DNA of 33,850 nt from the IMG/VR virus record IMGVR_UViG_3300045538_000084, positions 1 through 33,850 of that record, one strand, 5' to 3'. The notes beneath the pieces were generated by a model. That model was not told the origin of the DNA. It saw nothing but the letters and a program-made list of their open reading frames with translations, and made no database searches. The translations under genes were made by a program, and so were the position numbers. Numbering within the stretch: position 1 is the first letter of the stretch; each line of letters starts with the position of its first letter. This DNA is from a virus. Positions 3,533 through 31,572 of the stretch are shown here, piece by piece.

Positions 3533-3780
3533 ACCCGGATTTTGTTTGGATTCCAGCAGCAGCAACAAACGTGATGGAAACATGGAGACGGCATGGCTGG
3601 GTGCCACCCTCCGAACAACAGAGTTATCAACAGAAATGGAAAGGTTTTAAGAATGGACAAGATAGCAGCAGCACTGGTGAAAGCGCAGAAGGCATTCGGC
3701 CCAGCACTCAAGTCGTCAACAAACCCGCACTTTACGTCGCGTTACGCAGACCTGGCGGCTTGTGTCGAGGCTGTGATTGA
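3517..3780 (+). CDS. Small conserved-looking phage protein overlapping the ERF gene
   Basis: The ATG at 3517 opens a frame whose first 45 residues look like a genuine compact protein (MASILNPDFVWIPAAATNV, then WRRHGWVPPSEQ), resembling short phage proteins with an NPxFxWxPAAxTxV start. From about residue 46 onward the frame overlaps the ERF coding sequence for 128 nt and reads as low-complexity sequence (SSSTGESAEG), as expected if only the N-terminal part is under selection and the native stop was lost. The ribosome site is weak (AGGT). I regard the N-terminal part as real and the tail as doubtful. Confidence 0.45.
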   Translation: MASILNPDFVWIPAAATNVMETWRRHGWVPPSEQQSYQQKWKGFKNGQDSSSTGESAEGIRPSTQVVNKPALYVALRRPGGLCRGCD

Positions 3781-4189
3781 TGGACTTAACGCCAACGGTA
3801 TCGCACTAATGCAGCGCACACACGAGTGTGAGACTGGTGTAATCGTTGAGACGATCTTGATACACGAGTCAGGCGAGCAGATCAGCGGAGGCAAGCTGCA
3901 CGTGCCTGCCAGTAAACACGATGCCCAGGGCTACGGATCGGCTCTTACCTATGCAAGACGGTACTCGCTCATGGCAACCACTGGCGTGGCGGCTGAAGAC
4001 GATGACGGTAACGCAGCGTCTAAAAAGCCTCAGATCAGCCTACAGCAGTCTTTAGCAGCAATGGAGGCATCAACCTCTATGGACGCACTGAAAGCCGCTT
4101 ACAAGGCCGCATTTCAGGCCCACGGTGCAAACGAGCAGATCGAAGCCATGAAAGACGCAATGAAAGCCAAACTGATGGAGGTCAAGTAA
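3653..4189 (+). CDS. erf: ERF superfamily single-strand annealing protein
   Basis: ERF proteins anneal complementary single strands during phage recombination and genome circularisation. The 178-residue product shows the whole signature: KAFGPALKSSTNPHFTSRYADL at the N-terminus (read as two neighbouring segments), ETILIHESGEQISGGKLHVP, then DAQGYGSALTYARRYSL and TGVAAEDDDGNA. The acidic end of the core is followed by a helical C-terminal domain that is probably for oligomer or partner contacts. ATG 3653 is chosen over an earlier in-frame ATG at 3593 because AAAGG lies eight bases upstream and family proteins begin near MDKIAAAL. It partners the YqaJ exonuclease 400 bases downstream. TAATG couples it to the next gene. 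Confidence 0.92.
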   Translation: MDKIAAALVKAQKAFGPALKSSTNPHFTSRYADLAACVEAVIDGLNANGIALMQRTHECETGVIVETILIHESGEQISGGKLHVPASKHDAQGYGSALTYARRYSLMATTGVAAEDDDGNAASKKPQISLQQSLAAMEASTSMDALKAAYKAAFQAHGANEQIEAMKDAMKAKLMEVK

Positions 4190-4566
4190 TGTTCACACAC
4201 CCCTGGCCGTTTCGTACAACAGACCCTGAAACCAGTAAGGTGCCTGTCCATGTTGAGCGCCCTAAACAGATTCACCTGATGATTCTGAAAGAGCTGATGG
4301 CAGGCCCGATGAATGCGTATGAAGTATCAGAGAAGCTACCTCACATCCTGTATCAGTCAATCACTCCACGGGCTGCATGGCTGCTGAGACAGAAACTGGT
4401 GGAGATCGATGGGTATCGCAAAGGCTCACACCGAGCACAAAGAGTCTGGAAAATCACACAGAAGGGGATTGATTATGTTCGAGCAGCTGAAGAAAGTAAG
4501 AAGGACAAAGCAGTACGACAGGCCCAACTCAGAGTTGGAGAAAGCAATAGCCGACGTGCGGCGTAA
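4189..4566 (+). CDS. Winged helix-turn-helix DNA-binding protein
   Basis: The start is ATG 4189, overlapping the ERF stop by one base, with GGAGGT six bases upstream. The 125 residues begin with the TTDPETSK motif that is common at the start of phage winged-helix proteins. A domain of about residues 25-98 follows: PKQIHLMILKELMAG, AYEVSEKLPH, SITPRAAWLLRQKLVEI, a basic wing (GYRKGSHRAQRVWKIT) and KGIDYV. The last 25 residues are charged and probably disordered. It lies between the annealing protein and the exonuclease, so it may regulate the operon or help load the recombination proteins. The function is not established. Confidence 0.75.
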   Translation: MFTHPWPFRTTDPETSKVPVHVERPKQIHLMILKELMAGPMNAYEVSEKLPHILYQSITPRAAWLLRQKLVEIDGYRKGSHRAQRVWKITQKGIDYVRAAEESKKDKAVRQAQLRVGESNSRRAA

Positions 4567-4720
4567 CTTCCCCCACCTATTTTGGAAAGAGCATGAACTC
4601 CATAAACGTCGCTTCTACAACCAACCAGCTCATCCAGTCCCCTACGCAGGATACGTCTCAGCGTACAAGCCAATGGTTTCAGGAAAGGCTGGGCCACGTA
4701 ACAGCAAGTCGGGTAAGTGA
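4475..4720 (+). CDS. Possible overlapping small basic protein
   Basis: ATG 4475 follows GAAGGGG by seven bases and opens an 81-codon frame different from both neighbours. It overlaps the winged-helix gene by 92 nt and the exonuclease gene by 128 nt. The centre of the product looks protein-like (ELEKAIADVRRNFPHLFW, then KEHELHKRRFY), more so than the low-complexity tail of the winged-helix protein in the same DNA, while its last 30 residues look like shadow sequence. Either it is a real nested gene or the centre is a chance reading; I cannot settle it from one sequence. Confidence 0.35.
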   Translation: MFEQLKKVRRTKQYDRPNSELEKAIADVRRNFPHLFWKEHELHKRRFYNQPAHPVPYAGYVSAYKPMVSGKAGPRNSKSGK

Positions 4721-5240
4721 TGCGATTGCAGGAAAAGACACAGCCACCAGGCGCAACTATCTAGTTCAACTGGTAGCAGAAAGACTTACCGGAGAAAAGC
4801 AGGAGTCATTCACCAACGCTGCTATGCAATGGGGTACGGAGACTGAACCGCTCGCTCGTGTGGCGTATCAAACAACACATGACTGGGTGGAAGAAGTCGG
4901 GTTTATCAAGCACCCGACAATCGAGTGGTTTGGAGCTTCACCAGACGGGTTTACAGGTGACGGTCTGATTGAGATTAAATGCCCCAATACCACGACTCAC
5001 CTAGACTGGAGGCTTGATGGTGTTGTTCCAAAAAAGCACCAACCGCAGATGCTGGCACAGCTCGCTTGCACAGGACGGAAGTGGGTTGACTTTGTATCGT
5101 TCGACCCACGCCTGCCAGAAAAGCTACAGTTGTTTGTAGTTAGATTTGAACCAGATCAGAAGGAGATATACGCACTCGAAACAAAAATCAAAGCATTCTT
5201 AGTAGACGTACAAACAGCAATCAACAAACTGGAGCAGTGA
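4593..5240 (+). CDS. YqaJ / lambda-exonuclease-type viral recombinase exonuclease
   Basis: This 215-residue protein is a PD-(D/E)XK 5'-3' double-strand exonuclease of the lambda Red alpha/YqaJ family. Motifs in order: WFQERLGHVTASRVSDAIAG near residues 28-47, AMQWGTETEPLARVAY with the conserved glutamates, FGASPDGF containing the catalytic Asp, GLIEIKCPN carrying the E-x-K, and HQPQMLAQLACTGRKWVDF with the QxQ-type helix. GGAAAGA precedes ATG 4593. It resects ends to give 3' single strands for the ERF protein in the same operon. The upstream part overlaps the possible gene at 4475. Confidence 0.92.
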   Translation: MNSINVASTTNQLIQSPTQDTSQRTSQWFQERLGHVTASRVSDAIAGKDTATRRNYLVQLVAERLTGEKQESFTNAAMQWGTETEPLARVAYQTTHDWVEEVGFIKHPTIEWFGASPDGFTGDGLIEIKCPNTTTHLDWRLDGVVPKKHQPQMLAQLACTGRKWVDFVSFDPRLPEKLQLFVVRFEPDQKEIYALETKIKAFLVDVQTAINKLEQ

Positions 5241-14663: not shown

Positions 14664-16019
14664 TCACAGCAGCGTTACAGGTCGCTGTTGTACTAATTTA
14701 GGAGCGAGCAGAGATTGAATGGGGCTGGTAATGTCGACACCTTTGCCTTGGATGATTCCAGGGGTGGGTGCGCCTTGTTGTTGACGCGATAGCAGACCGC
14801 CGATGATAGGCCCAAGAAAATTAGAACCGCCGCCACCAGTTTGTGTTGTGGTCGATGATGCGCCTGATGGTTTCCAGCCTACGATGTTGTTGACCAAATC
14901 AGGGTCAAGGCCCAACGTAGTGAGAGCCGTAGTCAGATACTGCTGAGACGCACCAGGAAGGCTTGTAACGATATCTTTTGCTACCTGTAGACCGGATACT
15001 TCTTTGCCTGGCCCCATGCTTGTAGGTGTTGACTCGATGATCGGCGCTTCACCCTGAATCAACCCAGGGCCGTATCCAGCATCACCCAACAACGCTGCCT
15101 TCGTTGCGCTTCCAGTGGCATCTACAGCAGGCGTGCCCATTGATGCTTCTATCGCTGCAAGGTCACCAGCAGCAATTGCCCCAGCACTAGGCCCAAGCAT
15201 TGCAGTAGCTTCAGGAGTCAACTGACCAGCAATGTTCTCAACAGCAAGCGGAGGCTGCGCAAGAGTACCTGTAAGCGCAGTGTCACCAGGAACCAACACC
15301 GGCTCACTGATGACAGGAGGTGGAACCATATTTAGAAGACCTTCGCCATACCCGGCATTACTATACAGCGCGGCTCTTGTTGGATCTCCTGCAACAGCGC
15401 CAAATAAATCGCCACCAATAGCACCAAGAGCTTGTCCGCTTACATACGTTAACAACGCAGCATTTGCTGCTTTAGCGAGTTGGTCGACGATCTTGTCAAC
15501 TTTTGCACTACCGAACAATGTGCTTGATTGATATGTAGACGCCTCTGGCGCACCACTCTCACCGTATCGGATTGCGATATTTGTTCTGTCGCCTTGATCT
15601 GTAGCAACAGTACCTGCTAACGGGTAAATCGTAAATCCACCTGGGGTTGGCTGACCAGATAACTGTGATCCGGTAATCCCCATCTCGTTAAAAGCAGCAA
15701 TCGCTTTAGTGCCAGGAAATAAAAGACTAGAGGTTACCGCTCCATGCCCATCAACATACTCTTTGATAGGAATAAGATGTTGTGTTTCATCTGCTGTAAG
15801 CTGTCGACCCAACGCTGGGCTATAGTAACCAGCAAGTGTGGTCTCCTCTTCAAAGCGAGGACGGTATTCCGGCCCACTTTCACCTTGACCGACGATTTCA
15901 TCGCCAGCAAAACGCATACGGCCAGTCGGTACTAACACCGGCTGTACATTCATCTGAGAAGGGTCAGACGGAAATACTGACTTAAAGTATTCGCTTAGTT
16001 GTGACGCTGATACGGCCAT
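14664..16019 (-). CDS. Probable internal virion protein, unassigned
   Basis: 451 residues; AGGTGA precedes ATG 16019. The N-terminal 180 residues look globular (VLVPTGRMRFAGDEIVGQGE, GYYSPALGRQLTADE, FNEMGITGSQLSGQPTPGGF). The rest is Ala/Gly/Pro-rich with two copies of a short unit, TRAALYSNAGYGEGLLN and TKAALLGDAGYGPGLIQ, near residues 215 and 308. A Gly/Ser/Thr-rich linker (STTTQTGGGGSNFLGPIIGG) precedes the end. The repeat and the low-complexity linkers suggest an extended virion protein. I recognise no family. Confidence 0.6.
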   Translation of the reverse strand: MAVSASQLSEYFKSVFPSDPSQMNVQPVLVPTGRMRFAGDEIVGQGESGPEYRPRFEEETTLAGYYSPALGRQLTADETQHLIPIKEYVDGHGAVTSSLLFPGTKAIAAFNEMGITGSQLSGQPTPGGFTIYPLAGTVATDQGDRTNIAIRYGESGAPEASTYQSSTLFGSAKVDKIVDQLAKAANAALLTYVSGQALGAIGGDLFGAVAGDPTRAALYSNAGYGEGLLNMVPPPVISEPVLVPGDTALTGTLAQPPLAVENIAGQLTPEATAMLGPSAGAIAAGDLAAIEASMGTPAVDATGSATKAALLGDAGYGPGLIQGEAPIIESTPTSMGPGKEVSGLQVAKDIVTSLPGASQQYLTTALTTLGLDPDLVNNIVGWKPSGASSTTTQTGGGGSNFLGPIIGGLLSRQQQGAPTPGIIQGKGVDITSPIQSLLAPKLVQQRPVTLL

Positions 16020-20717: not shown

Positions 20718-21019
20718 ATTTTCCCCGGATGCGTTCTAAAGAAACGGTTATCAGGATGGTTCAAAAAGGCTTTGAATCGTGTCTGATCGATAACAGTAAA
20801 GCCCTGCATGATCTTGTCACGGTTTAACTGATCGACAACAGTGAGAGGCAGGCGAGCAACGTGGGTAATGACATCATCGAACTTACCGTCTGAGTCATTG
20901 TATTGCCGCTTGTTAGCATCGATGATTTTAGAAACATCCTGCCTTGTTTCTAGAATCACCCCGTCATCAGTCTCGTGTGCGACTGTATAACGGCCATCTT
21001 CAACTGAGAATAGTTTCAT
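20714..21019 (-). CDS. Conserved phage protein of unknown function downstream of capsid
   Basis: 101 residues with ATGA overlap to the HNH gene upstream. The sequence has an N-terminal beta part (MKLFSVEDGRYTVAHETDD), a helix with SKIIDANKRQYNDS, HVARLPLTVVDQLNRDKIMQ and a signature ending FLNHPDNRFFRTHPGKI. The closing FLNxPDNRxFRTxPGxx motif recurs in small proteins of many phages with T7-like or SU10-like heads. No activity is known to me; a head-assembly role is guessed from place. Confidence 0.7.
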   Translation of the reverse strand: MKLFSVEDGRYTVAHETDDGVILETRQDVSKIIDANKRQYNDSDGKFDDVITHVARLPLTVVDQLNRDKIMQGFTVIDQTRFKAFLNHPDNRFFRTHPGKI

Positions 21020-21606
21020 TGATCTACTCTAACATGCGACCAGGTTCTTCCAACCCTGACGCCTCGGATGCAATTTGGAGACACGCCAAACCGTCTAGCT
21101 AGGCTTGCATGGCTGTCTGAGCTTTGACGGATTTGCTTCACGATTTCTTCGTTTATCAGCGCCTTGCCGTTTCCAGTTCCTACAGGAGCAACTACTCGCT
21201 TCCTGCCTTTGCTAATCATGTCTTGAGAATTTTCTTTTGGAGTTCCGATTGATAGATGTTTAGGGTTCACACAACTCGGGTTATCACAACTATGCATTAC
21301 AAACATACCGGCAGGAATTTCTGCCTTATTTGCCAATCGCCAGCTCACTCTATGAGCGCCATCAGACCCTAGTGCTTTAACGCCTAAACTTATTCTTCCG
21401 TATCCATTTGCAAGTTTCTGACCTTGCCATTCCCAACATTCGTTTTCGCCAACCTTTTTGACTTTAAGCCAGAACCTAACCTCTAACGGGGCTTGCGACC
21501 ACTTCCTATCTTCTGTGGTTCCGTATTTTTTCAATCTAACGTAATGCTTATAACAGTAACCAAATGCTTTTAATTTTCCACCACAACCATCTACTTTGCA
21601 CTGCAT
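21016..21606 (-). CDS. Homing-type HNH endonuclease following the capsid gene
   Basis: 196 residues from ATG 21604-21606. N-terminal zinc motif C3/C8/C18/H21, then ECWEWQGQKLANGYGRISLG, HRVSWRLAN and the HNH core HSCDNPSCVNPKHLSIGTP, with a C-terminal helix-turn-helix (LARRFGVSPNCIRGVRVGRTW) for target recognition. The stem of a hairpin covers its ribosome site (21608-21635, separate entry). An upstream in-frame ATG at 21642 exists and would translate through the hairpin. The gene is less GC-rich than the capsid gene. Insertion beside a highly conserved gene is typical of homing endonucleases. Confidence 0.88.
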   Translation of the reverse strand: MQCKVDGCGGKLKAFGYCYKHYVRLKKYGTTEDRKWSQAPLEVRFWLKVKKVGENECWEWQGQKLANGYGRISLGVKALGSDGAHRVSWRLANKAEIPAGMFVMHSCDNPSCVNPKHLSIGTPKENSQDMISKGRKRVVAPVGTGNGKALINEEIVKQIRQSSDSHASLARRFGVSPNCIRGVRVGRTWSHVRVDQ

Positions 21607-21607
21607 G

Positions 21608-21635
21608 GCTACCCCCATCGTTAGACAGGGGTAGC
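21608..21635 (-). promoter_or_regulatory. Hairpin after the capsid gene covering the HNH ribosome site
   Basis: GCTACCCC at 21608-21615 pairs with GGGGTAGC at 21628-21635, a perfect 8-bp stem with a 12-base loop. On the minus strand the second arm (GGGGTAGC) ends two bases before ATG 21606, so folding would hide the Shine-Dalgarno sequence of the HNH gene. It also lies 26 bases past the capsid stop, where many phages have a terminator, but no T-run follows. Either sequestering or a decayed terminator is possible. Confidence 0.55.
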
Positions 21636-21661
21636 TTATCATGCAATCAGCACACGGTCAA

Positions 21662-22606
21662 TTACAGAGCTGCATTAAGATCGGCCACCAGACCATGAGC
21701 TGCCTCATTGCGCATTTCGAGCGTGAACTCAGCAAGAAGCTGGGTCTTCTCGCTGTCGCCCGTCTTAGCCAGATCGTTAGTCTGGAACGGACGCAGATAC
21801 GCAACAGCCGCATACTCAGGATCGATCAAGAAGGCATCGCGGGTACGGATGAAGCGGTCAGGCGTTACCGACAGAGTACCAAAGTCCGACATATAAACGT
21901 CGGCAGCACCGATAATCGTCGTCGGCTGATCGCCAGGTGCCATATAACGCTGGGCAGCAATACCGGCGAAACTTGACACTTTCTGCTTCAGACCGCTGTT
22001 AACAACCAGCATCGTTGGGTTGCCACCGCTGTCAAACACCTCAGCAACGACGGTCTTCAGCAGCGTCTCGGTAAATGTGCGGGTAGCACCATCCGAGCGG
22101 GTCGATACACCAATCGTCGTGGGATCGGTGCCAGACGTACCGGCGTCAGTGTTGGTCTTGATCCAAGACAGCAGAGCACCCAGCTTACGAGCGGTCGACG
22201 AAGAACCAGCACTACGGCCCTGATTGGCACCGAGAATGGTTTCCATGTCACGCTTAAGCTCGCTGGCAGCTTTAGAAAGCTGATAAGCCTTCTCCGACTT
22301 ACGACCGGCCTTGTTCACCGCTTCCAGGGTGCCGGAGACTTGAATCGTCTTCTGCACGATCTGGCAGTAGTTGCCTAGACGGGTCGTCGGGCTGATGGTC
22401 GCAGAAACAGCGTCATCACCTTCAACAGCAGCGTTCGCACTGGTAGCAGCAGCAAGGCTATCACTCTGCCACTCGTGGAACACGGCGGTTGCTTTGGTGC
22501 GAGCAAGGGTTGAGAGAATGGGAGTTTCGGTGGGGCTGATGTCATAAATGACGTCGATCAGATCCTCACGCTGGCCAATGGCCGTATGGGCGGTAAAGGT
22601 GGGCAT
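21662..22606 (-). CDS. Major capsid protein, SU10/DUF5309 type
   Basis: 314 residues, HK97-like fold of the DUF5309 family: MPTFTAHTAIGQREDLIDVI, ISPTETPILSTLARTKAT, VFHEWQSDSLAAA, NYCQIVQKTIQVSGTLEAV, ELKRDMETILGANQ, then GNPTMLVVNSGLKQKVSSF and DVYMSDFGTLSVTPDRFI. The IxDVIYxISPTETPxLS start is characteristic. It is encoded right after the scaffold and with unusually GC-rich, regular codon use, as expected for the most abundant virion protein. Confidence 0.93.
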   Translation of the reverse strand: MPTFTAHTAIGQREDLIDVIYDISPTETPILSTLARTKATAVFHEWQSDSLAAATSANAAVEGDDAVSATISPTTRLGNYCQIVQKTIQVSGTLEAVNKAGRKSEKAYQLSKAASELKRDMETILGANQGRSAGSSSTARKLGALLSWIKTNTDAGTSGTDPTTIGVSTRSDGATRTFTETLLKTVVAEVFDSGGNPTMLVVNSGLKQKVSSFAGIAAQRYMAPGDQPTTIIGAADVYMSDFGTLSVTPDRFIRTRDAFLIDPEYAAVAYLRPFQTNDLAKTGDSEKTQLLAEFTLEMRNEAAHGLVADLNAAL

Positions 22607-22614
22607 GATTTATC

Positions 22615-23508
22615 TCACAAGAATTTTTCAAAAAGGCTTGCGGCATCTCTGGCTTTGCCAGACTTCCGCAGTCGGTTGCGTTCAGCCTTATACGATTCGG
22701 TTTCTGGTTGGGCAGTTTTTGCAGCGCCGGACTTGAGAACTGGAGGTGCCTGAGTTACTTTCTTAGGCCCTTGGCTTACAAGTTTGTCGTACTGCGCTGC
22801 CTTCCATAACGCCAAAACCGCACGGCTGTCATATACGTTTGCAAGCTCCTGATCGGTAAAACCTATCTGCTTGGCATAGTTGCGAATGTCTGCCCTGACT
22901 TGATCGGCCTTTTCAGGTTGCGAAAACTCAGGGATAAACTGACTTAGCTTCTGCGCTTCTTGAGCTAGATGAGCTTGCAGTGCTTGCTGCTGCTCGGCTT
23001 GTCGCATATGTGCGAGGCGTTGCTGTTCAGCCTGTACTGCCGCCAATTGCTCTTTCCGCTGCATCTGCTCGGCCATCTTTACTGCATAGCCAATCGGATC
23101 GGTTTCTTTCAGAGCTTCAATGTTTTCCGGTTTGTTCTGCTCAGCTAGAACTTTTTGAATAAGTTCCAGGCGTTGAGCATACTGATCGCGGAGTTGTTTA
23201 GCCTGCTCGACAGCGGCTTTTTCAGCCTCAACAGCCTTACGCTGTTCTGCGAGCGCCTGGGTCTTTTGAGTGTAGTCAGTGCCTAATTGATACGACTTAA
23301 TGAGTTCATCGATGGTAACTTCGCGTTCCTCACCTGCGGCTTTCACCCGGTAGCGCGGTGTTTCCTCGACTTGCTCTTGTTGCACCTCTTGCGTTTCTTC
23401 CTGCGGCTCTTGAGTCGGTTCTTCACCTTCATCGGCCATCATTCCGAGAATCGCATTGGCTGCACTGTTTACATCAAGTGGGCCACTTCCATTTGGATTG
23501 GTGTCCAT
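22615..23508 (-). CDS. Head scaffolding protein
   Basis: 297 residues, acidic and Gln/Glu-rich. An N-terminal disordered stretch (EPTQEPQEETQEVQQEQVEE) is followed by YRVKAAGEEREVTIDELIKS and LGTDYTQKTQALAEQRKAV, a short domain typical of phage scaffolds, then a long coiled coil and a basic C-terminus (SYKAERNRLRKSGKARDAAS) suited to contact capsid subunits. AGGGG precedes ATG 23508. It lies between portal and capsid and probably directs procapsid assembly before being removed. Confidence 0.88.
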   Translation of the reverse strand: MDTNPNGSGPLDVNSAANAILGMMADEGEEPTQEPQEETQEVQQEQVEETPRYRVKAAGEEREVTIDELIKSYQLGTDYTQKTQALAEQRKAVEAEKAAVEQAKQLRDQYAQRLELIQKVLAEQNKPENIEALKETDPIGYAVKMAEQMQRKEQLAAVQAEQQRLAHMRQAEQQQALQAHLAQEAQKLSQFIPEFSQPEKADQVRADIRNYAKQIGFTDQELANVYDSRAVLALWKAAQYDKLVSQGPKKVTQAPPVLKSGAAKTAQPETESYKAERNRLRKSGKARDAASLFEKFL

Positions 23509-23515
23509 ATTACCC

Positions 23516-23743
23516 CTAAAGTATTTTCCAACGCTTTGATTTCATCTCAGTCGTGGCTGCAATAGCCTCAAAATGACTGACGATGGCATCAATTGCACGA
23601 ATCATTCTATAAAAACTTTCTCTTTTGTCAATATCTGACTCATAAGTATTTAGTAAAGCCTCAGTATATATAGACTTTAACTTGTTCAGTTCACCGCGAA
23701 ACTCATCGTCTCGCATTAAGTTAGCAGCGCGTTCTGGCGTCAT
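23516..23743 (-). CDS. Small helical phage protein between portal and scaffold
   Basis: 75 residues, beginning MTPERAANLMRDDEFRGELN. It has two helices; the second contains ESFYRMIRAIDAIVSHFEAI. Short MTPERAxxLxxD proteins are common at this location in podovirus head blocks. It is coupled to the portal stop by ATGA. A capsid-assembly helper is plausible; nothing shows it directly. Confidence 0.7.
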   Translation of the reverse strand: MTPERAANLMRDDEFRGELNKLKSIYTEALLNTYESDIDKRESFYRMIRAIDAIVSHFEAIAATTEMKSKRWKIL

Positions 23744-25803
23744 CCGGGTATCTCAACATTTGCAGAAATACCTGCTCCAATCTTGGCAGCTTTCAACTGA
23801 GCCTCAACCTGAAACTCCTGCTGTTTCAATTGGAGTTCAGCCGCGGCCTTTTCTCGCGCCAGTTGAATATCAGCCTGAGCCTTGAGTCTTTGAGTCTCAA
23901 TTGCTGCCATTGCTTTCTGCTGCTCGATCTGAATCTGAGCCTGGGCTTGCGCCATCATCGCATCCAACGCAGGATTGCCCTGTTGCTGTTGCGGCTGTGC
24001 AAGCTGCTGATCGACTTCAGGCGTGATCTCTTTGAAGAACTCGGTCGAGTCTTTGAACCCTGCCGCCTCGATAAACCTACCCAGCGTCGCACGATACTGA
24101 CCGACAGACACCAGCGGATTGGCAGGGCCATAACCCTGAAGAATCTGCTCCTGTTTAGCCAGCACCATCTGAAGCATGGCCATTTGCTCTTGCTTTGTAC
24201 CCGTCCCAAGACCGACAGAAATGGTTACATCATATTGGTTCGACCACTCTCGCGGATCCATCGGCACAAACTTGCCGCGCATCCTGATAAGTCTGGGTTG
24301 GTCTTGATACTTGCAGAGTAAATGAAGAATGCCCTTAAACAGGCTTTTTACACCCGTCTCAGCAAACAATCGAGCAATCAGCTCTAGCTTGCCCTGTGCA
24401 GCGCCCATAGTAGCCGCTACAGCCGCAGCAGTGACGTTCTGTAGGACGTTAGGGTCTAACCCCTGCTGAGCGTCTGAAACGCCTGTACGCTTCTGCTGGA
24501 CGTTATCAAAGTACCCCAGCATTGGGAATGCACTGTCAGCAATGTTCGGCACAACCATCGGCGTTATCGCACCGGGTGACTTCATCCTGACAACGCCACC
24601 AGGCGTGACGTTCAGAAGGTCATCCAGATTAACCTGACCCTCAATCGCACCCACCCGAGCATTGTTCGACAGATACAGGTTATCAAGAGCCTGCCTGACA
24701 AGAGTGGACTTAATCAGTTGCAAATCCATCGTCCGATCAGCCATAGACTGACCAAAGAATTTATGCGGAATCGGGAACGGGCAGATTACATGGAAAGGCA
24801 CATAATCAACCGGAATGTTGGCTTTTGTACCATCAGCCCGAGTGAGAATCTGCTGATTGCTGTAGTAAATCTGACGAAGTTCAGCAAGGCCGTCATCGTC
24901 TGAGTCTACGTAGATATAGCACTCGTATACCTCGACTTCCTGCATGGACTCGTCAAGACTCTCCTGCTCGAACGGTTCTTCACCCGGCGAGTACCGAGCG
25001 ATACGCTCTTCTGTAAAGTCCAGAGAATTGAACTGAGGCAGGCTATAAACCTCATCCTTGTCGAAACCCATCTGGACGAGTTCGGTTCTCGGCACGAGAC
25101 TACGATGAGCACAGAAAGGCATCTTCTCCTGACCGAATACAGCTTTCTTGCTAACAATAAACTCTTCTGGCGGTACGCACTCAATTGCAACACGACCAGA
25201 CTTGTCTTTCTTTCTGACGGTAACGGTTGACGTTGTTGACATCATCGGCTGACCGTCAAGACCCATCATGACGTTGCCATCAGGCCCGAGCATTTCTTCC
25301 TGCTCGATACTCTGCCCGACAATCTCTCGCGTGCCGTCTGACAGCAACAGAGCTAGTTCAGCATCGGTAAGGTTCCGATACTCTTCTTCAGTAACGTCGA
25401 TACGCTCGTCCCAGTAGGCTTTAACCGTACCTGTTTTAGCCGTGAGCGCGTCCCAGAACCATTGATGCAGAATCGCAAAGCCTGGGTTGTCTTTGTAAAA
25501 CACCCAGTTACAGTAGTCGGTTGCTTGTTTAGCGGTTTCTTCATCACCAGGCCCGACAGGTTCAAACCGAACGATATCGTCGCTTGCAGTAAAAACCCGG
25601 ATAAGCTGCGGCAAAGCACCATCTACGGCTTCTGCAACCTCACCCGTTACGATCTGGCTGCGCCCCTCTACTTCGTTGCCATACGGGTTGCGCAGGTAGT
25701 AATTCAGGGCTTCAGCACGCTGGGCGGTTGTTTCGCTGTCCAGCATGCCAATGGCGTCATCAATCTCTGCACTTAGGATTGATGCAAGGCGTCCTTCATC
25801 CAT
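23740..25803 (-). CDS. Portal protein
   Basis: 687 residues, in the size range of P22-type portals. Features: EALNYYLRNPYGNEVEGRSQ near residue 30, IVTGEVAEAVDGALPQLIRV, then GTVKAYWDERIDVTEEEY, VECVPPEEF-like sequence (IECVPPEEFIVSKKAV) and a clip region with VDYVPFHVICPFPIPHKFFG, MDLQLIKSTLVRQALDN, followed by the helical barrel (VTAAAVAATMGAAQGKLEL). The C-terminal 90 residues are Gln-rich coiled coil, as in portals with a long barrel. It forms the 12-subunit packaging pore. Confidence 0.93.
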   Translation of the reverse strand: MDEGRLASILSAEIDDAIGMLDSETTAQRAEALNYYLRNPYGNEVEGRSQIVTGEVAEAVDGALPQLIRVFTASDDIVRFEPVGPGDEETAKQATDYCNWVFYKDNPGFAILHQWFWDALTAKTGTVKAYWDERIDVTEEEYRNLTDAELALLLSDGTREIVGQSIEQEEMLGPDGNVMMGLDGQPMMSTTSTVTVRKKDKSGRVAIECVPPEEFIVSKKAVFGQEKMPFCAHRSLVPRTELVQMGFDKDEVYSLPQFNSLDFTEERIARYSPGEEPFEQESLDESMQEVEVYECYIYVDSDDDGLAELRQIYYSNQQILTRADGTKANIPVDYVPFHVICPFPIPHKFFGQSMADRTMDLQLIKSTLVRQALDNLYLSNNARVGAIEGQVNLDDLLNVTPGGVVRMKSPGAITPMVVPNIADSAFPMLGYFDNVQQKRTGVSDAQQGLDPNVLQNVTAAAVAATMGAAQGKLELIARLFAETGVKSLFKGILHLLCKYQDQPRLIRMRGKFVPMDPREWSNQYDVTISVGLGTGTKQEQMAMLQMVLAKQEQILQGYGPANPLVSVGQYRATLGRFIEAAGFKDSTEFFKEITPEVDQQLAQPQQQQGNPALDAMMAQAQAQIQIEQQKAMAAIETQRLKAQADIQLAREKAAAELQLKQQEFQVEAQLKAAKIGAGISANVEIPG

Positions 25804-25943
25804 TTTTCTGCTCGCTTGGTGTAGGGGCGCTTCTCTTCCTTTTCGGTGAGTAGCTGCCGGAGTTCGTTGATTTGCTGGCGCAGTTCTGCAATATCACGAT
25901 CATAATCACGCCGCAAAACGATATTGCCCTGTGGGACTAGCAT
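25773..25943 (-). CDS. Short coiled-coil protein between terminase and portal
   Basis: 56 residues starting at ATG 25941-25943, which shares its A with the terminase stop (TAATG). It is mostly one heptad-repeat helix (DIAELRQQINELRQLLTEKE) followed by a basic region (KRPYTKRAEKWMKDAL). It overlaps the portal start by 31 nt. The leucine-zipper-like helix suggests dimerisation with a portal or terminase partner. I do not recognise a named family. Confidence 0.6.
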   Translation of the reverse strand: MLVPQGNIVLRRDYDRDIAELRQQINELRQLLTEKEEKRPYTKRAEKWMKDALHQS

Positions 25944-27205
25944 TAGACCACCCAACGTGTGTTAACAGGCAAGGGTTTGCCCCAGTTGTCATTATTCATC
26001 ATCTCTAACGATTGAGCAAGGTATCGGAAAGCATCAGCCGCATGAGAGTGCTCATCGTGCAAAGGCGCACCAGCTTCCTGCGTAACCTGATTTATCTGCC
26101 GCCTGTAGCGTTTTAGGTGATTAACAAGCTCTGTACACCTGTCAGCATCAAAATAAGTGCGGGGAAATATCATCCTGGCGAGCCTTATCCCCTCTTCTGG
26201 GTTGCCTCTGGCTAATACTTGGACGTTTCTGCCGAGCGTCTGTAGCAGTTCCTGAGTAGATTTCCCAGACTTAAAGTCTCTGTGAGCACCGTCGTGAGGT
26301 ATGTAATCGGTTCCCCAGTTCCACTTTCTTTCTTGTAACTGCATTACGTAGCTGTCAATCGTTCTGTGAGAGTCTTCTATGTAATCGATCACCCGGACTT
26401 CTGACGCAACCCTCTGCACGCAGATAATCGACATAGAGTCGTTCCAGCCCAAGTCCCAGACCGTATGAACTTTAAGCTGCGGGTCGTATGGCACAGCACG
26501 AATCCGGCCCTCTCTCTGGGTGGCTTCGATCTCATTGGCGTAAATAGCGCCCTCGACAGCAGGTCGGCACTTGCCCTCCCATGTCGTGAGATAGCCAACA
26601 GGGTCACGGTCTAACCACTGTCTGCGCTCTTTATCAAGTTCAGGCGGGAACCACGGGTTATCCTGCCAGTTCATCTCGATAATGACAGATTCTTCTGGCG
26701 GTCTAACAACAAACCGGCTGAAAGTCTCGTCTGTATCAAGTTCAGGGTTAAACGTCACCCATATCTCTGAACCTGGCTTTCTGATCGTTGGTATCAGTAC
26801 ATCCCAACTCTTTTTTGTAACGACCTGAGCCTCTTCCACCCAGCAGATGTCAGTGCCCTCGTAGCTTTTGAGGTTGAAGACACCCTGCTGACGTATGCCT
26901 GCAAAGGTGAACTCTGTGCCGTTTGTGCCGAGAATCTTGTTCTCTTGGATGGTATAGAACTGATCTAAGCCTAGAGACTCGATCTGGTCTTTTAAAAGAC
27001 GATGAACAGACTCTTGAATAGACTTCTGCGTTTCTCTTGCACAAAGAACCCGGATAGGCTTTGTCGCACCAATAGAAACCAGCGCCCGAGCTACCGACCA
27101 ACTCTTAGCACTACCTCGACCACCGTGGATGACTTTGTACCGCTTCGGCTGGAAGAGAGGCAGCAGCTTCTGCGGTATCTCAATTCTCGTTTTGGATACC
27201 GACAA
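25943..27205 (-). CDS. terL: Terminase large subunit (PBSX/Terminase_3 type)
   Basis: 420 residues. Walker A GGRGSAKS at 28-35, adenine-motif region RVLCARETQKSIQESVH, Walker B ICWVEEAQ, then the coupling motif IWVTFNPELDTDETFSRF. The nuclease domain has WDLGWNDSMSI with its catalytic Asp, YIPHDGAHRDFKSG and DEHSHAADAFRY with the last acidic residues. The start is TTG 27203-27205; a stop codon two codons upstream rules out an earlier start. It is the packaging motor and headful or end-cutting nuclease. Confidence 0.95.
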   Translation of the reverse strand: MSVSKTRIEIPQKLLPLFQPKRYKVIHGGRGSAKSWSVARALVSIGATKPIRVLCARETQKSIQESVHRLLKDQIESLGLDQFYTIQENKILGTNGTEFTFAGIRQQGVFNLKSYEGTDICWVEEAQVVTKKSWDVLIPTIRKPGSEIWVTFNPELDTDETFSRFVVRPPEESVIIEMNWQDNPWFPPELDKERRQWLDRDPVGYLTTWEGKCRPAVEGAIYANEIEATQREGRIRAVPYDPQLKVHTVWDLGWNDSMSIICVQRVASEVRVIDYIEDSHRTIDSYVMQLQERKWNWGTDYIPHDGAHRDFKSGKSTQELLQTLGRNVQVLARGNPEEGIRLARMIFPRTYFDADRCTELVNHLKRYRRQINQVTQEAGAPLHDEHSHAADAFRYLAQSLEMMNNDNWGKPLPVNTRWVV

Positions 27206-27479
27206 TCTCTAGCACCGTTTGAATAGGGCCACCGTTCGACCCTGTTACCTGTGTCTCGACAGGAATCAGCCTCGCAGCCAGCTTATAAAACTCGGTAAGG
27301 TGCTTTGGGTCTTCTTGCGCCCACTGCACCATGCGTTGAGTCCCGCCTAGTTGCTCAAACGCTTCAGCAATAGCTATTTTCATGCTGTGGTGTACTTTAT
27401 TCGGCACACCCTTTGGTCGGCCAGCGCCTGCTCTTGGGCCACCTCTTTTCCTGATTTTTTCTTGTATGTTTTCTGACAT
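27180..27479 (-). CDS. terS: Putative terminase small subunit
   Basis: 99 residues; AGGAG is seven bases before ATG 27479. The start KRGGPRAGAGRPKGVPNKVH is an AT-hook-like basic arm common in small terminase subunits of this type, followed by a helical domain (SMKIAIAEAFEQLGGTQRM, HLTEFYKLAARLIPVE) and a linker ending in TGSNGGPIQTVLEI. The stop overlaps the large subunit start by 26 nt. The role is well supported by position and by the arm, but the family has few characterised members. Confidence 0.8.
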   Translation of the reverse strand: MSENIQEKIRKRGGPRAGAGRPKGVPNKVHHSMKIAIAEAFEQLGGTQRMVQWAQEDPKHLTEFYKLAARLIPVETQVTGSNGGPIQTVLEIVGIQNEN

Positions 27480-27507
27480 TTCCTGACTCCTGTCGGTTGG
27501 TCAGTAA

Positions 27508-28185
27508 TTACTTACATCGGTTTTGTATCAATCTTGCAACGTATGCATCTTTCTTCTGCTCTTTTGTTGGAGCGAAAAGCGCCCTACTCCTGTTATCAGT
27601 GTTTTCAGGCTCACACAGATAATACATTGCTAGACTGTTTCTTGTGACGTTATCAGGACAATCTATCGGCTCCGGTAGTCCATGCCATGACCCGCGAGTA
27701 TCAAAAATGACCGCTCGGTTAAATACTGGAGCAATCTCTTTTATCAGCCGTTTCTTTCCGTCGTACAGTCCTAGATGACCACCCCATTCCTCATCCCAGT
27801 CTGGCGTCAGGTAAACGATGACATTTAGCCTGCGCTGAAGGTTGAGTTTAGGATGGATGTTGTAATCCAAATGTACGTTGAGCTTGCCACCCCTGCCATG
27901 CTGATGGAGTCCACCACCGTGTAACCCGTAGTCAGCAATAATATGCTCGCCAATCAACGCTCCAAACTGGTCTGCAAGCCCCGCTAAGGTTGTTAGCGCT
28001 CTGTAAGTCGCTTGCCCGAACCTTTGCCAGTTGTTGCAGGTTTGCTTGATCTCTAACGGGTTATCGTATCGGAACCAGCACGGGTCGTCTTGATGCGGGA
28101 ACTCTGCGGCTATTTCTTCCGCCTCTTGCAGGCAGTCATCAGCTATTGCATGCCAGAATGGCTTGTGAAATATCGTTAGGTTCAC
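27508..28185 (-). CDS. 2-oxoglutarate/Fe(II)-dependent oxygenase (prolyl-hydroxylase type)
   Basis: 225 residues, starting at GTG 28183-28185, coupled to the upstream gene by GTGA. The iron site H105-x-D107 lies in KLNVHLDYNIHP, the distal His is H168 in SWHGLPEP and the 2-oxoglutarate-binding Arg is R182 in TRNSLAMYY. LQRRLNVIVYLTPDWDEEWG and GHLGLYD complete the fold. Phage-encoded members of this group may hydroxylate proteins or modified bases. It is placed between an ADP-ribosyltransferase-like gene and the terminase genes. Confidence 0.88.
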   Translation of the reverse strand: MNLTIFHKPFWHAIADDCLQEAEEIAAEFPHQDDPCWFRYDNPLEIKQTCNNWQRFGQATYRALTTLAGLADQFGALIGEHIIADYGLHGGGLHQHGRGGKLNVHLDYNIHPKLNLQRRLNVIVYLTPDWDEEWGGHLGLYDGKKRLIKEIAPVFNRAVIFDTRGSWHGLPEPIDCPDNVTRNSLAMYYLCEPENTDNRSRALFAPTKEQKKDAYVARLIQNRCK

Positions 28186-29270
28186 TCTACGCTCATCATC
28201 TTGACTGCTTCTTCTTCACCTGGGAATACTACAAAGTTGCGAGTTCCTGTACCAGCACCGCGAGAACCTTGGTCTAAGTACCGAATACCAGGGATTCCAG
28301 CAGCCCTAAGCATCTGAGCAGTTTCAGGGCTGTTACCAAACGTCTGAAGAATTGTTTTTCCAGGCATATCCATAATGCCTTTGTAGAAGCCTTTTGTTGT
28401 TGGGTTTTTGTTCAAATTCTGAAACACCTCTAACAAAGGCCTACCTTGATTCATAACGAAATCTTTAACTTCTTTAGGCTGATCTTTAAGCGGCTTGTCG
28501 TAATCCAGCATCTTGCCAATCATCTCGTCTGGGATGTCTACGGTGTAAAAGTTGCCTGGATTCATATTGATCCCAGAAAACTTATTTAAGTCCAAATTTT
28601 TAACAAACTTTGCTTGGGCATCCCATCCGTAATCTGGAGACAGAATTTCTTCCATCAGTAGCTTTGGGTGTCTTCTTGTCATCATTGATTCCCAAAACCC
28701 AACCTCTGCATTCGCTTCATCAATGGCTTTTTGATTTCTAGCCCTATGAGCCAGTTCTTGTTTTCTTAGCGATTGATTGTACAAATACTCAAGCGATTTT
28801 CCGCCGTAACCAGCTTTTTCCGGATCAATCGAGGCATCAATAAATTGATAACTTTTCGCAACGCCAGGAGCCTCGGCAAAGTACAACCCGTGCCCATACG
28901 CCTGCGCTCCCTCGCCCGTGCCAATCTTAGAAGCGTCAAACTTACTAAACCTGTGCGGACTGCCATGATACGCAGTAAGCGCCAATAGCCCCGCAAGCTC
29001 ATCTGACCCTTTAGCAGCCTGCACAACATCGGCCAGCAATCCAGGCACCTGAGCGGCGGCTTTCATAGCCCCAGCAGGGATTCCAGCAGCAGGCATATTA
29101 CTAACCGCCTGCCCCGTCCTATACGCTTCCTCTGATCCGTATTCCGGCCTTTGCAGGCCCAGGAATCCACGGCCGAACGGGCCAGCAACATTAGCGAACG
29201 GCTGCCCAATATACCGCTGGTAAGTATTGGCAGGGTTTATTGCCTGTAACAGTTCTTCCAGCGTAGCCAT
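28182..29270 (-). CDS. ADP-ribosyltransferase-like protein (ART-PolyVal type), probably virion-borne
   Basis: 362 residues from ATG 29268-29270; an in-frame start further upstream lies within the preceding gene. The first 95 residues are Gly/Ala-rich and resemble virion proteins (GPFGRGFLGLQRPEYG, GIPAGAMKAAAQVPGLLADV). At 100 starts AYHGSPHRFSKFDASKIGTG, then EGAQAYGHGLYFAE (Y130), matching the H-Y part of the ART-PolyVal signature, and the C-terminal AAGIPGIRYLDQGSRG with TGTRNFVVFP. The segment between these motifs is AT-rich (18 G/C in 60 at 28561-28620 against 37 in 60 at 29101-29160) and may be an insertion. Related domains ride in phage heads and modify host proteins; that activity is inferred. 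Confidence 0.78.
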   Translation of the reverse strand: MATLEELLQAINPANTYQRYIGQPFANVAGPFGRGFLGLQRPEYGSEEAYRTGQAVSNMPAAGIPAGAMKAAAQVPGLLADVVQAAKGSDELAGLLALTAYHGSPHRFSKFDASKIGTGEGAQAYGHGLYFAEAPGVAKSYQFIDASIDPEKAGYGGKSLEYLYNQSLRKQELAHRARNQKAIDEANAEVGFWESMMTRRHPKLLMEEILSPDYGWDAQAKFVKNLDLNKFSGINMNPGNFYTVDIPDEMIGKMLDYDKPLKDQPKEVKDFVMNQGRPLLEVFQNLNKNPTTKGFYKGIMDMPGKTILQTFGNSPETAQMLRAAGIPGIRYLDQGSRGAGTGTRNFVVFPGEEEAVKMMSVE

Positions 29271-29271
29271 G

Positions 29272-29568
29272 TCATTTCGCCTTATTCCTTGCGCTGATAG
29301 CCTTTGCCTTAGCCTTGGCGTCCGCTTTGGATGACGCACCCCACGCTCTCAGCGACAGCAGCAACCGCGTAGGCTCACCGTTCTTGTACTCCGGCCCTGG
29401 CATGTTGCCCATCCTCGCCAAAAACGATGCTCGCCTCGGATTGTCACCAGACTTGACAGGAGCCTTTAGATTGCTCCCAGGGTTCTCTCGCTCATAAGAC
29501 TTGCGCCCAGCCTCATTCAACCCACCTTTGGGGTTCTTGCCAGCCTTTCGAGTCCACGCCGCACTCAT
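29272..29568 (-). CDS. DUF6321 family protein
   Basis: 98 residues from ATG 29566-29568 (MSAAWTRKAGKNPKGGLNE). The conserved string SYERENPGSNLKAPVKSGDN, then PRRASFLARMGNMPGPE and RLLLSLRAWGASSKADAKA match DUF6321 proteins found in aquatic phages near the packaging genes. It is very basic with a Lys/Ala tail (DAKAKAKAISARNKAK), so DNA or RNA contact is plausible. The start is coupled to the upstream gene by ATGA. Function unknown. Confidence 0.82.
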   Translation of the reverse strand: MSAAWTRKAGKNPKGGLNEAGRKSYERENPGSNLKAPVKSGDNPRRASFLARMGNMPGPEYKNGEPTRLLLSLRAWGASSKADAKAKAKAISARNKAK

Positions 29569-29879
29569 TCTTCTTCCAGCAGCTTGGCGATCTTTAGCAG
29601 AATCTTCTGCTTGGGGTTCATCCCCTTGACAGGGCCACCAGACAACCAACGGTCACAGGTCATATCCTCGCTACACACAAAGTCATTCTGCGTGCAATAC
29701 CCATAGTCATCGTCATCCGTGCCCATGCACTCCATCATCTCCGGCGTCTGGATATATGCTCCGCACTTACCACAGGAGTATTCCTCCTCGTCGGCTTCCC
29801 GGTAGTTAGCAGCAGATACCGCCTTTTCGCGGTTTTTATCGTTTGCCTTCTGATCCTGCGTGACGATTGGGCAGTTCAT
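29565..29879 (-). CDS. Cysteine-rich small protein of the phage head block
   Basis: 104 residues. Five cysteines in spaced pairs suggest metal binding: EYSCGKCGAYIQTPEMMECM, DDYGYCTQNDFVCSEDMTCD, followed by RWLSGGPV and a C-terminal Lys-rich helix (KILLKIAKLLEEE). The layout is similar to small HiPIP-like or zinc proteins in other aquatic phages, from memory. ATGA overlaps on both sides (29876-29879 and 29565-29568). The exact metal and role are not shown. Confidence 0.72.
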   Translation of the reverse strand: MNCPIVTQDQKANDKNREKAVSAANYREADEEEYSCGKCGAYIQTPEMMECMGTDDDDYGYCTQNDFVCSEDMTCDRWLSGGPVKGMNPKQKILLKIAKLLEEE

Positions 29880-30273: not shown

Positions 30274-30927
30274 TCAATCCTCGACATAATGAGATAAGTG
30301 GCCGATTCTGCCCCGTACACCTATCATATCAACTTCGTGCAAATGTTGTCTAGGCAGAAACTTGTAAAAGCCATGCTCAAGGTCAAACACCCCGCCAGAC
30401 TCCCACTTGTGCCAGTGATACTCCTGGATTTCAGACAACGTGTCTCTGACAATCGGAATCAACTCACGCGAAAACGAGTAGAGCCTAGTCATCAACATAC
30501 CAGTCGTGCCGCACTGCTCTGTACTAAACCCGGTAGGTAACGCTCGCTTGAATGTAGCCAGCTTGTGATTGTCAGGTCGGAAGTTATCTGTAAGTTCATA
30601 CCTTCCAGAAAGTTTGAAGATCCGGTCGTGATTAATCGGCTGGCGTAATAACTCACGCGTCGTATAAACCTCGATAGCAGACTTAACAAACCCTAATTCT
30701 TGACGTGCGCTATACACTCGCTTGACATACGGGTCATCCCAGAAAGTAAACAGTTTGGCTCTAACCGGGATATGCCCCACAAACTCGCTAGAAAGACCGT
30801 TACGCGACGATTCTGCGATCCAGATATCAGCTAATGGGTAGCGCCTCCAAATCGATTCTAGGCCGTTTAAAGTCTCCGCAAGCCTCATCGGGTCGTTGTT
30901 GATAGCAGAGTTAATGAGAAAGATCAC
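30274..30927 (-). CDS. Glycosyltransferase-like (WavE-like) protein
   Basis: 217 residues, starting at GTG 30925-30927 with AAGGAGG four bases upstream and GTGA overlap to the preceding gene. IFLINSAINNDPMRLAETLN, YPLADIWIAESSRNGL, ELGFVKSAIEVYTTREL, then RIFKLSGRYELTDNF form a pattern seen in WavE-type sugar transferases and their phage relatives, where KxSGRYxL marks the donor site. No clear D-x-D is seen. With the next gene it makes a pair of sugar-modifying functions at the head of the late block. Confidence 0.65.
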   Translation of the reverse strand: MIFLINSAINNDPMRLAETLNGLESIWRRYPLADIWIAESSRNGLSSEFVGHIPVRAKLFTFWDDPYVKRVYSARQELGFVKSAIEVYTTRELLRQPINHDRIFKLSGRYELTDNFRPDNHKLATFKRALPTGFSTEQCGTTGMLMTRLYSFSRELIPIVRDTLSEIQEYHWHKWESGGVFDLEHGFYKFLPRQHLHEVDMIGVRGRIGHLSHYVED

Positions 30928-31526
30928 CAGACCCTCCTTGTGCTGTTCCAGGCTTGAGTGGCGAATACGTGACCTTTGCCTGAGTACGGCAGGCCAGCAA
31001 AGTGGTTCGGCAAGAAATAGTGACTCGGGTAGATCGTGATATCTCGGTACTGGTGTTCATGTACCGCTCTTGTGATTCTGCCTGGCCCTGACCACTGCCA
31101 CGGTGGAGCATCAGGCGTCTCTGATTTCATGTCGGCAATGATCTGACCGATAAGAGGATGTTCTGGCACAGCCCCGACGATACCGTTTGCAATCAACCCA
31201 GGTCGTAAAAGTTCTGACTCCCAACAAGCGAATATGTCAGGTTCCAGCAGCCAGTCTTCTAGGCTTCTAAGACACTCGCTGTCAGCGTCCAGTGCGATAC
31301 CACCGTACTTGTACAAGATTTCCCAGCGCATGCAGTCTGCTACTCCACACAGTTCTTTGGAGTAGTAACGCATAGCGTTAGCAAGGTGCCACGAGTTTTT
31401 GAGAGATTCGTTGCCCCAGACTGTTACTTGATAGTCCGGGTTGAGAAGCCTCCAGGTGTTGATCTCTTTGTCTGGGCGCTTAGATTCATCGCCAACCCAA
31501 ACGAAATGTAGATGTTTGGGGATCAT
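30924..31526 (-). CDS. Glycosyltransferase with DXD (Gly_transf_sug/Och1-like)
   Basis: 200 residues from ATG 31524-31526. MIPKHLHFVWVGDESKRP, NTWRLLNPDYQVTVWGNES, then CGVADCMRWEILYKYGGIAL and DADSECLRSLEDWL form the complete signature of the glycosyltransferase family with a sugar-binding D-x-D (ALDADSE). It is the first gene past the terminator at 31527-31551, whose hairpin supplies its ribosome site (GGGGTG). The target is unknown; phage enzymes of this type may alter host surface glycans or virion proteins. Confidence 0.85.
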   Translation of the reverse strand: MIPKHLHFVWVGDESKRPDKEINTWRLLNPDYQVTVWGNESLKNSWHLANAMRYYSKELCGVADCMRWEILYKYGGIALDADSECLRSLEDWLLEPDIFACWESELLRPGLIANGIVGAVPEHPLIGQIIADMKSETPDAPPWQWSGPGRITRAVHEHQYRDITIYPSHYFLPNHFAGLPYSGKGHVFATQAWNSTRRVW

Positions 31527-31551
31527 AAAAAAACACCCCTGAAGAGGGGTG
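31527..31551 (-). terminator. Factor-independent terminator directly before the first late gene
   Basis: On the minus strand CACCCCT pairs with AGGGGTG (7 bp, loop CTTC) and is followed by seven T residues, then the ATG of the glycosyltransferase gene. The 3' arm doubles as that gene's Shine-Dalgarno sequence. It ends the small-gene operon at 31573-33850, or acts as an attenuator for late expression. There is no T-run on the plus strand. Confidence 0.85.
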
Positions 31552-31572
31552 AAAACCACAAGGAGACGGGAA

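What the first reader, a model, noticed from the sequence alone, without database searches (positions are those of the whole stretch)
28182..29270. ADP-ribosyltransferase-like protein encoded beside the terminase
The H-Y signature of ART-PolyVal (YHGSPH, GHGLYFAE) follows an N-terminal Gly/Ala-rich virion-like region. The segment between conserved motifs is clearly AT-rich, suggesting an inserted or swapped specificity region. If packaged and injected, this would be a host-takeover effector comparable in principle with T4 Alt but of a different family.
Basis: partly seen in the sequence, partly recalled or inferred. Interest (0 to 1): 0.62.

Follow-up and report, generated by a model that had tools for sequence, protein, structure and literature searches.

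The report
Phage ADP-ribosyltransferase with two swappable cassettes
Beside its DNA-packaging genes this bacterial virus carries a probable ADP-ribosyltransferase, an enzyme that tags other molecules, in which two internal blocks are exchanged between related viruses independently of each other while the catalytic frame stays put, as expected if the virus keeps re-aiming one weapon at changing bacterial targets.

Summary
Window 28182-29270 (-) encodes a 362-aa protein with YH102GSP and GHGLY130FAE. Its ART (ADP-ribosyltransferase) domain is most like ART-PolyVal: Pfam 1.4e-5, below the curated cut-off; the model shows the six ART core strands; BFVD fold matches reach 2.5e-18. Between the core strands lie two variable cassettes, V1 (aa 142-239) and V2 (aa 266-320), separated by a conserved 26-aa island. 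In phages about 90% identical in flanking DNA, nucleotide similarity disappears at the cassette edges. Among 46 relatives there are 26 V1 and 24 V2 types, which reassort: V1 similarity is unrelated to leader or V2 similarity (Mantel r -0.06 and 0.01). Cassettes have moved recently between unrelated backbones, carry their own AT-rich composition (V1 below leader GC in 38/38 combinations), and within a type are under purifying selection. Sometimes the whole ART domain is replaced behind the same leader. The likeliest reading is a virion-delivered host-modifying ART with two exchangeable target-recognition modules. NAD+ chemistry, packaging and target are untested. The usual third catalytic position is Asn in all 37 aligned members.

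The parts
28182..29270 (-). Complete gene, 362 aa: leader plus ART-type domain with two variable cassettes
28974..29270 (-). Leader, aa 1-99: Ala/Gly-rich, predicted helical at low confidence; nearly identical among near relatives whatever cassettes follow
28848..28973 (-). ART core part 1, aa 100-141: strand 1 with H102, strand 2 with Y130, following helix
28554..28847 (-). Variable cassette V1, aa 142-239 (40% GC); type a7, seen only in this phage in the collections searched
28476..28553 (-). Conserved island, aa 240-265 (NFYTVDIPDEMIGKMLDYDKPLKDQP), core strand 3; fourfold-site identity 0.75 against 0.44-0.57 in the other conserved segments
28311..28475 (-). Variable cassette V2, aa 266-320 (38% GC); type b8, shared with L001/L002 (97% DNA)
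28182..28310 (-). ART core part 2, aa 321-362: strands 4-6, GIPGIRYLDQGSR and N345FVVFP; plus stop codon
27508..28185 (-). 2OG-Fe(II) oxygenase, next gene downstream, overlapping the ART stop codon; conserved beside the ART whichever cassettes it carries
29272..29649 (-). DUF6321 protein directly upstream; not co-exchanged with the cassettes
25943..27205 (-). Terminase large subunit; probable small subunit at 27180-27479; SU10-like portal at 23740-25803
3593..5240 (+). Erf-like single-strand annealing protein (3593-4189) and RecE-like exonuclease (4593-5240): a possible short-homology recombination system

Best explanation
The gene encodes a phage effector of the ART superfamily (H-Y group, closest to ART-PolyVal): a leader carries it in the head/packaging programme, and the catalytic frame (strands 1-6, H102, Y130) binds NAD+ and transfers ADP-ribose to a host molecule early in infection. 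Two helical appendages inserted between core strands, V1 (between strands 2 and 3) and V2 (between strands 3 and 4), serve as exchangeable target-recognition modules. Related phages trade them one at a time by recombination in the conserved stretches on either side, probably through phage annealing-type recombination, so that one enzyme chassis can follow changing host targets. SHOWN: ART-type sequence and fold elements, two cassettes, independent reassortment, recent transfer, purifying selection within types, no co-exchanged neighbour. INFERRED: catalysis, packaging and injection, cassette role in targeting, recombination agent.
For: ART identity: Pfam 1.4e-5; family profile against the PDB gives 25 of 26 hits to tankyrase catalytic domains with HG and GxYFAE aligned, though weakly (best E 0.35); model with high confidence in most core strands; BFVD matches to 2.5e-18, several named ART-PolyVal. 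Exchange: DNA similarity drops out at V1 and V2 between phages about 90% identical around them; V1 is the only unaligned stretch in the 7.9-kb block 21662-29569 against G002. Reassortment: 37 combinations of 26 V1 and 24 V2 types; 7 V1 types seen with more than one V2, 11 V2 types with more than one V1; Mantel N-V1 r -0.06, V1-V2 r 0.01, against N-C r 0.62. Recent movement: L026/L028 V1 38% while all else is 96-100%; L036/L054 V1 96% (dS 0.05) on unrelated leaders; window/L001 V2 dS 0.08 against leader dS 0.49; dN well below dS within types. Own composition of cassettes. Delivery context: terminase, portal, scaffold or MCP nearby in many loci; in Sulfitobacter phage phiGT1 the homologue lies between portal and scaffold. 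Phage Rad52-like recombinases, the group that includes Erf, recombine short, diverged DNA (PMC3945230).
Against: No NAD+ binding, activity, packaging or target was tested. The position of the usual catalytic Glu (strand 5) is Asn345 in this protein and in all 37 aligned members, so activity might be altered or absent. Foldseek against the PDB gave nothing significant; diphtheria-toxin-like proteins and exotoxin A appear only at E above 1. The leader has no recognised packaging signal and is poorly modelled. Erf was not found in the partial records of relatives. The V2-leader correlation (r 0.40) shows that V2 is exchanged less freely than V1.
Confidence: 0.5

Rival explanations
1. The cassettes vary to escape recognition by host or prophage defences (an antitoxin-like inhibitor or a sensor that binds the ART surface), while the target stays the same. 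V1 and V2 would be antigenic faces, not aiming parts.
For: Discrete, highly divergent, AT-rich, recently moving types also fit diversification under recognition pressure; leader and catalytic frame are conserved.
Against: Cassettes are long (V1 58-117 aa), helical, and under purifying selection within types, more than simple escape needs. One V1 type (a3) recurs in a Pseudomonas plasmid polyvalent protein.
Confidence: 0.2
2. A phage-borne polymorphic toxin of the MuF kind: the exchangeable part is the toxin and a neighbouring small gene gives immunity.
For: Leader plus exchangeable C-terminal domain: L016 and L071 keep the leader but carry another ART-like domain. MuF toxins also sit in the packaging module (PMC5576092).
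Against: No MuF domain was detected. The neighbours (DUF6321 protein, 2OG oxygenase) stay 90-98% identical in L003 while both cassettes change, so no immunity gene moves with them. The downstream gene is a 225-aa oxygenase, not a small ORF.
Confidence: 0.12
3. V1 and V2 are unconstrained loops of a virion protein, possibly inactive as an enzyme, that diverged by drift and ordinary phage mosaicism.
For: Loops between core strands are common places for inserts; the third catalytic position is Asn; phage genomes are mosaic elsewhere too.
Against: Drift does not give the same cassette at 96% DNA identity on unrelated backbones (L036/L054), nor dN well below dS within types. V1 is the only sub-genic replacement in the 7.9-kb head/packaging block. 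H102 and Y130 are invariant in 37 members.
Confidence: 0.1
4. The mosaics are chimeric metagenome assemblies.
For: Most sequences are short metagenomic contigs joined across short conserved stretches.
Against: The same combinations were assembled in different data sets: L003/L004, L001/L002, L007/L008, L026/L027, L031/L032/L033, L043/L044. The a3 cassette type occurs in a Pseudomonas aeruginosa plasmid. Island DNA differs between partners, which is unfavourable for assembler chimeras.
Confidence: 0.03

Closest known systems
ART-PolyVal (PF18760) / ARTs of polyvalent proteins, Tox-ART-HYD2 clade (PMC5512222)
   Same: HG motif in strand 1, GxYF in strand 2, phage provenance, head/packaging or polyvalent context; a Pseudomonas plasmid multi-ART protein shares V1 type a3.
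   Different: Below the Pfam cut-off; no Asp in modelled strand 5 (RNFVV, then F349 and P350 where some relatives have Asp). The published description does not report two reassorting cassettes in the passages read.
T4 Alt
   Same: ART superfamily; proposed early host-modifying role by delivery with the DNA.
   Different: Alt belongs to the R-S-E group; packaging and target are known for Alt and not for this protein.
MuF toxins of temperate phages (PMC5576092)
   Same: Encoded in the packaging module; constant N-terminal part with an exchangeable C-terminal effector.
   Different: No MuF domain detected; exchange is mostly inside one catalytic domain; no small immunity ORF follows.
Type I restriction HsdS subunits (from general knowledge)
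   Same: Works like it in layout: two variable recognition segments between conserved stretches that reassort independently.
   Different: Unrelated protein and chemistry; an analogy only.

Membership tests
ADP-ribosyltransferase superfamily, H-Y group | His in strand 1 (HG) and Tyr in strand 2 (GxYF) | tested here: met
   H102 and Y130 invariant in 37 members; strands 98-104 and 129-132 in the model; aligned with tankyrase
ADP-ribosyltransferase superfamily, H-Y group | ART fold | tested here: inconclusive
   Six strands in ART order; BFVD ART-PolyVal matches significant; PDB matches not significant
ADP-ribosyltransferase superfamily, H-Y group | NAD+ binding and ADP-ribosyl transfer | not testable with these tools
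   Needs an enzyme assay; N345 at the usual Glu position leaves it open
ART-PolyVal (PF18760) | Score above the curated cut-off (31.2 bits) | tested here: not met
   26.3 bits over aa 98-143; relative L047 reaches 32.3
Tox-ART-HYD2 / polyvalent ARTs | Asp in strand 5 (PMC5512222) | tested here: not met
   Modelled strand 5 is RNFVV, followed by F349 and P350; the published alignment itself was not inspected
Polyvalent proteins | Several effector domains in one polypeptide | tested here: not met
   One recognised domain in 362 aa; relatives L051, L053 and L075 are large multidomain proteins
T4 Alt family | R-S-E active site | tested here: not met
   The protein has the H-Y signature
MuF toxins | MuF domain | tested here: not met
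   No MuF hit in Pfam or PHROGs
Virion-packaged effectors | Presence in virions | not testable with these tools
   Only gene context is available

The most novel reading that the evidence does not exclude
A combinatorial effector: phages of several lineages share a pool of exchangeable recognition cassettes for two fixed slots in one ADP-ribosyltransferase chassis, so that new target specificities arise by independent reassortment, as with HsdS recognition domains but in a delivered host-takeover enzyme.
Probability: 0.4. Interest if true: 0.82.

Novelty: new variant of a known kind. Interest (0 to 1): 0.62.

Why it matters
Phage ARTs are common, yet the targets of most are unknown. A family in which nature has exchanged two blocks one at a time on an otherwise near-identical protein offers ready-made comparisons: alleles such as those of L026 and L028 differ almost only in V1, so their natural targets can be compared directly. 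If the cassettes set the target, this would be a general way for phages to retool an effector, and the cassette pool would be a record of the host molecules under attack.

Tried and rejected
Silent cassette copies or an invertible switch in the same phage: no second copy in the record and no inverted repeats at the gene. Immunity gene moving with the cassettes: neighbours stay constant. Origin of the window's own V1: no relative in IMG/VR or INPHARED. Leader in isolated phages: no match. Genome collection: four distant relatives only. PDB fold search: not significant. Fold of the domain family that replaces the ART in L016 (modelled on L074): pLDDT 46, not used; profile comparison links it to the ART motif region (probability 91, E 1.3e-6). 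PADLOC and NCBIfam: nothing for the protein. Protein at the same place in a related spring phage (L065): looks like another ART type by eye, no family hit. Erf in relatives: not found in partial records.

Full report
WHAT IS THERE. The ORF at 28182-29270 (-) is 362 aa. It lies directly downstream of a DUF6321 protein and directly upstream of a 2OG-Fe(II) oxygenase, a probable small terminase subunit, the large terminase subunit and an SU10-like portal, in a virus record of 33,850 bases with scaffold, major head protein, virion proteins, a DNA-ejection-like protein and tail fibre. The closest head protein in the phage collection is 74% identical, in an uncultured spring phage; the host is unknown.

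ART IDENTITY. Pfam gives ART-PolyVal at 1.4e-5, below its cut-off, over aa 98-143. A 37-member alignment keeps H102, G103, Y130, Y242, D245, P247, D248, S336, R337 and N345 invariant. The AlphaFold2 model (mean pLDDT 68) places strands at 98-104, 129-132, 240-246, 328-332, 344-348 and 357-361, mostly at high confidence, with the leader poorly modelled. BFVD matches reach 2.5e-18 and include ART-PolyVal entries. PDB fold matches are not significant, although diphtheria-toxin-like proteins and exotoxin A are among the first ranks. The family profile picks tankyrase catalytic domains in 25 of 26 weak PDB sequence hits. The PARP catalytic Glu position corresponds to N345 by my reading of the alignment; the prototype ART of Roseovarius podovirus has Glu there by eye. 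Whether the family is catalytically normal is open.

TWO CASSETTES. Window DNA compared with relatives: L003 (93% identical before the variable part and 88% after it) aligns up to gene base 416, again at 712-794, and again from 961. The unaligned parts match V1 (424-717) and V2 (796-960) as delimited from protein. L001/L002 share V2 but not V1. Against G002 the only unaligned stretch between 21662 and 29569 is 28557-28857, which is V1. In L016 bases 203-1033 are replaced by another domain with a YHGT...F motif, distantly related by profile; L071 has the same domain on a variant of the leader.

REASSORTMENT. 46 members were cut into leader, motif, V1, island, V2 and C-terminal part. At 45% identity there are 26 V1 and 24 V2 types. 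For pairs with leaders at least 90% identical, median identity is 25% in V1 and 27% in V2, near the level of unrelated pairs (21% and 19%). With L017 added there are 37 combinations; V1 types a1, a2, a3, a4, a5, a6 and a9 each occur with two to four V2 types, and eleven V2 types occur with two to four V1 types. Among 14 non-redundant members of the window's leader family, leader and C-terminal part correlate (Mantel r 0.62), leader and V2 less (0.40), leader and V1 not (-0.06), V1 and V2 not (0.01). The 14 members are related, so the p-values are approximate, and cluster numbers depend on the threshold.

RECENT MOVEMENT AND SELECTION. L026/L028: V1 38% identical in DNA, all other segments 96-100%. 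L036/L054: V1 96% (dS 0.05), leader 42%, V2 43%, C 40%. Window/L001: V2 dS 0.08 and island dS 0.07 against leader dS 0.49. L009/L010: V2 dS 0 against leader dS 0.61. Within a type dN is well below dS (L007/L028 V1 0.14 against 1.08). V1 has lower GC than the leader in 38 of 38 distinct combinations (means 44% and 59%; third positions 36% and 60%). The island has higher fourfold-site identity (0.75) than leader, motif or C-terminal part (0.57, 0.48, 0.44), consistent with its serving as a homology anchor; pairs are not independent, so this is suggestive only.

HOW CASSETTES MOVE. No inverted repeats and no silent copies were found, so a built-in switch is unlikely. The window encodes an Erf-like annealing protein and a RecE-like exonuclease. 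Phage Rad52-like recombinases, Erf among them, recombine short and diverged sequences (PMC3945230). That these proteins make the exchanges is inference.

DELIVERY. In many loci terminase, portal, scaffold or head genes lie beside the ART; in phiGT1 the homologue lies between portal and scaffold. PMC9503650 argues from such contexts that phage ARTs are packaged. This is context, not proof.

MEMBERSHIP. I file the protein as an H-Y group ART-superfamily protein closest to ART-PolyVal, not as a proven member of ART-PolyVal or Tox-ART-HYD2, because the cut-off and the strand-5 Asp were tested and not met. It may work like a virion-delivered effector whether or not it is a member.

LIMITS. Most relatives are short metagenomic contigs; the repeated recovery of the same combinations in separate data sets speaks against assembly chimeras. 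The literature search covered open PMC papers only and found no report of the cassette system.

Noticed in passing
window 25943-27479 and L003, L004, L005, L016, L017, L026, L029, L030, L035: The terminase genes are exchanged as a block between otherwise close phages: TerL is 97-100% identical in L001, L002, L027 and L028 but only 34-38% in L003, L005, L016, L026 and others.
   Followed up: no
window 14664-16019: A 451-aa protein without family match has two unaligned internal stretches (14831-15207, 15393-16010) against G002 within otherwise similar DNA: another candidate for internal segment exchange.
   Followed up: no
L065:7331-8245: The related spring phage MW202462 has upstream of its terminase a 304-aa protein with a different leader and, by eye, another ART-like pattern; no Pfam or informative NCBIfam family.
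   Followed up: partly
window 21016-21642: HNH endonuclease directly downstream of the major head gene, with no counterpart in G002; looks like a mobile insertion.
   Followed up: no
window 30924-31559: Glycosyltransferase with the DXD sugar-binding signature (Pfam Gly_transf_sug 1.1e-10) next to the effector block, conserved in relatives.
   Followed up: no
L053 and L054, C-terminal part of the ART: A third insertion lies between the conserved SRG and GTRNF motifs.
   Followed up: no
L075: One 1144-aa protein carries both this ART type and the second ART-like domain that replaces it in L016.
   Followed up: no
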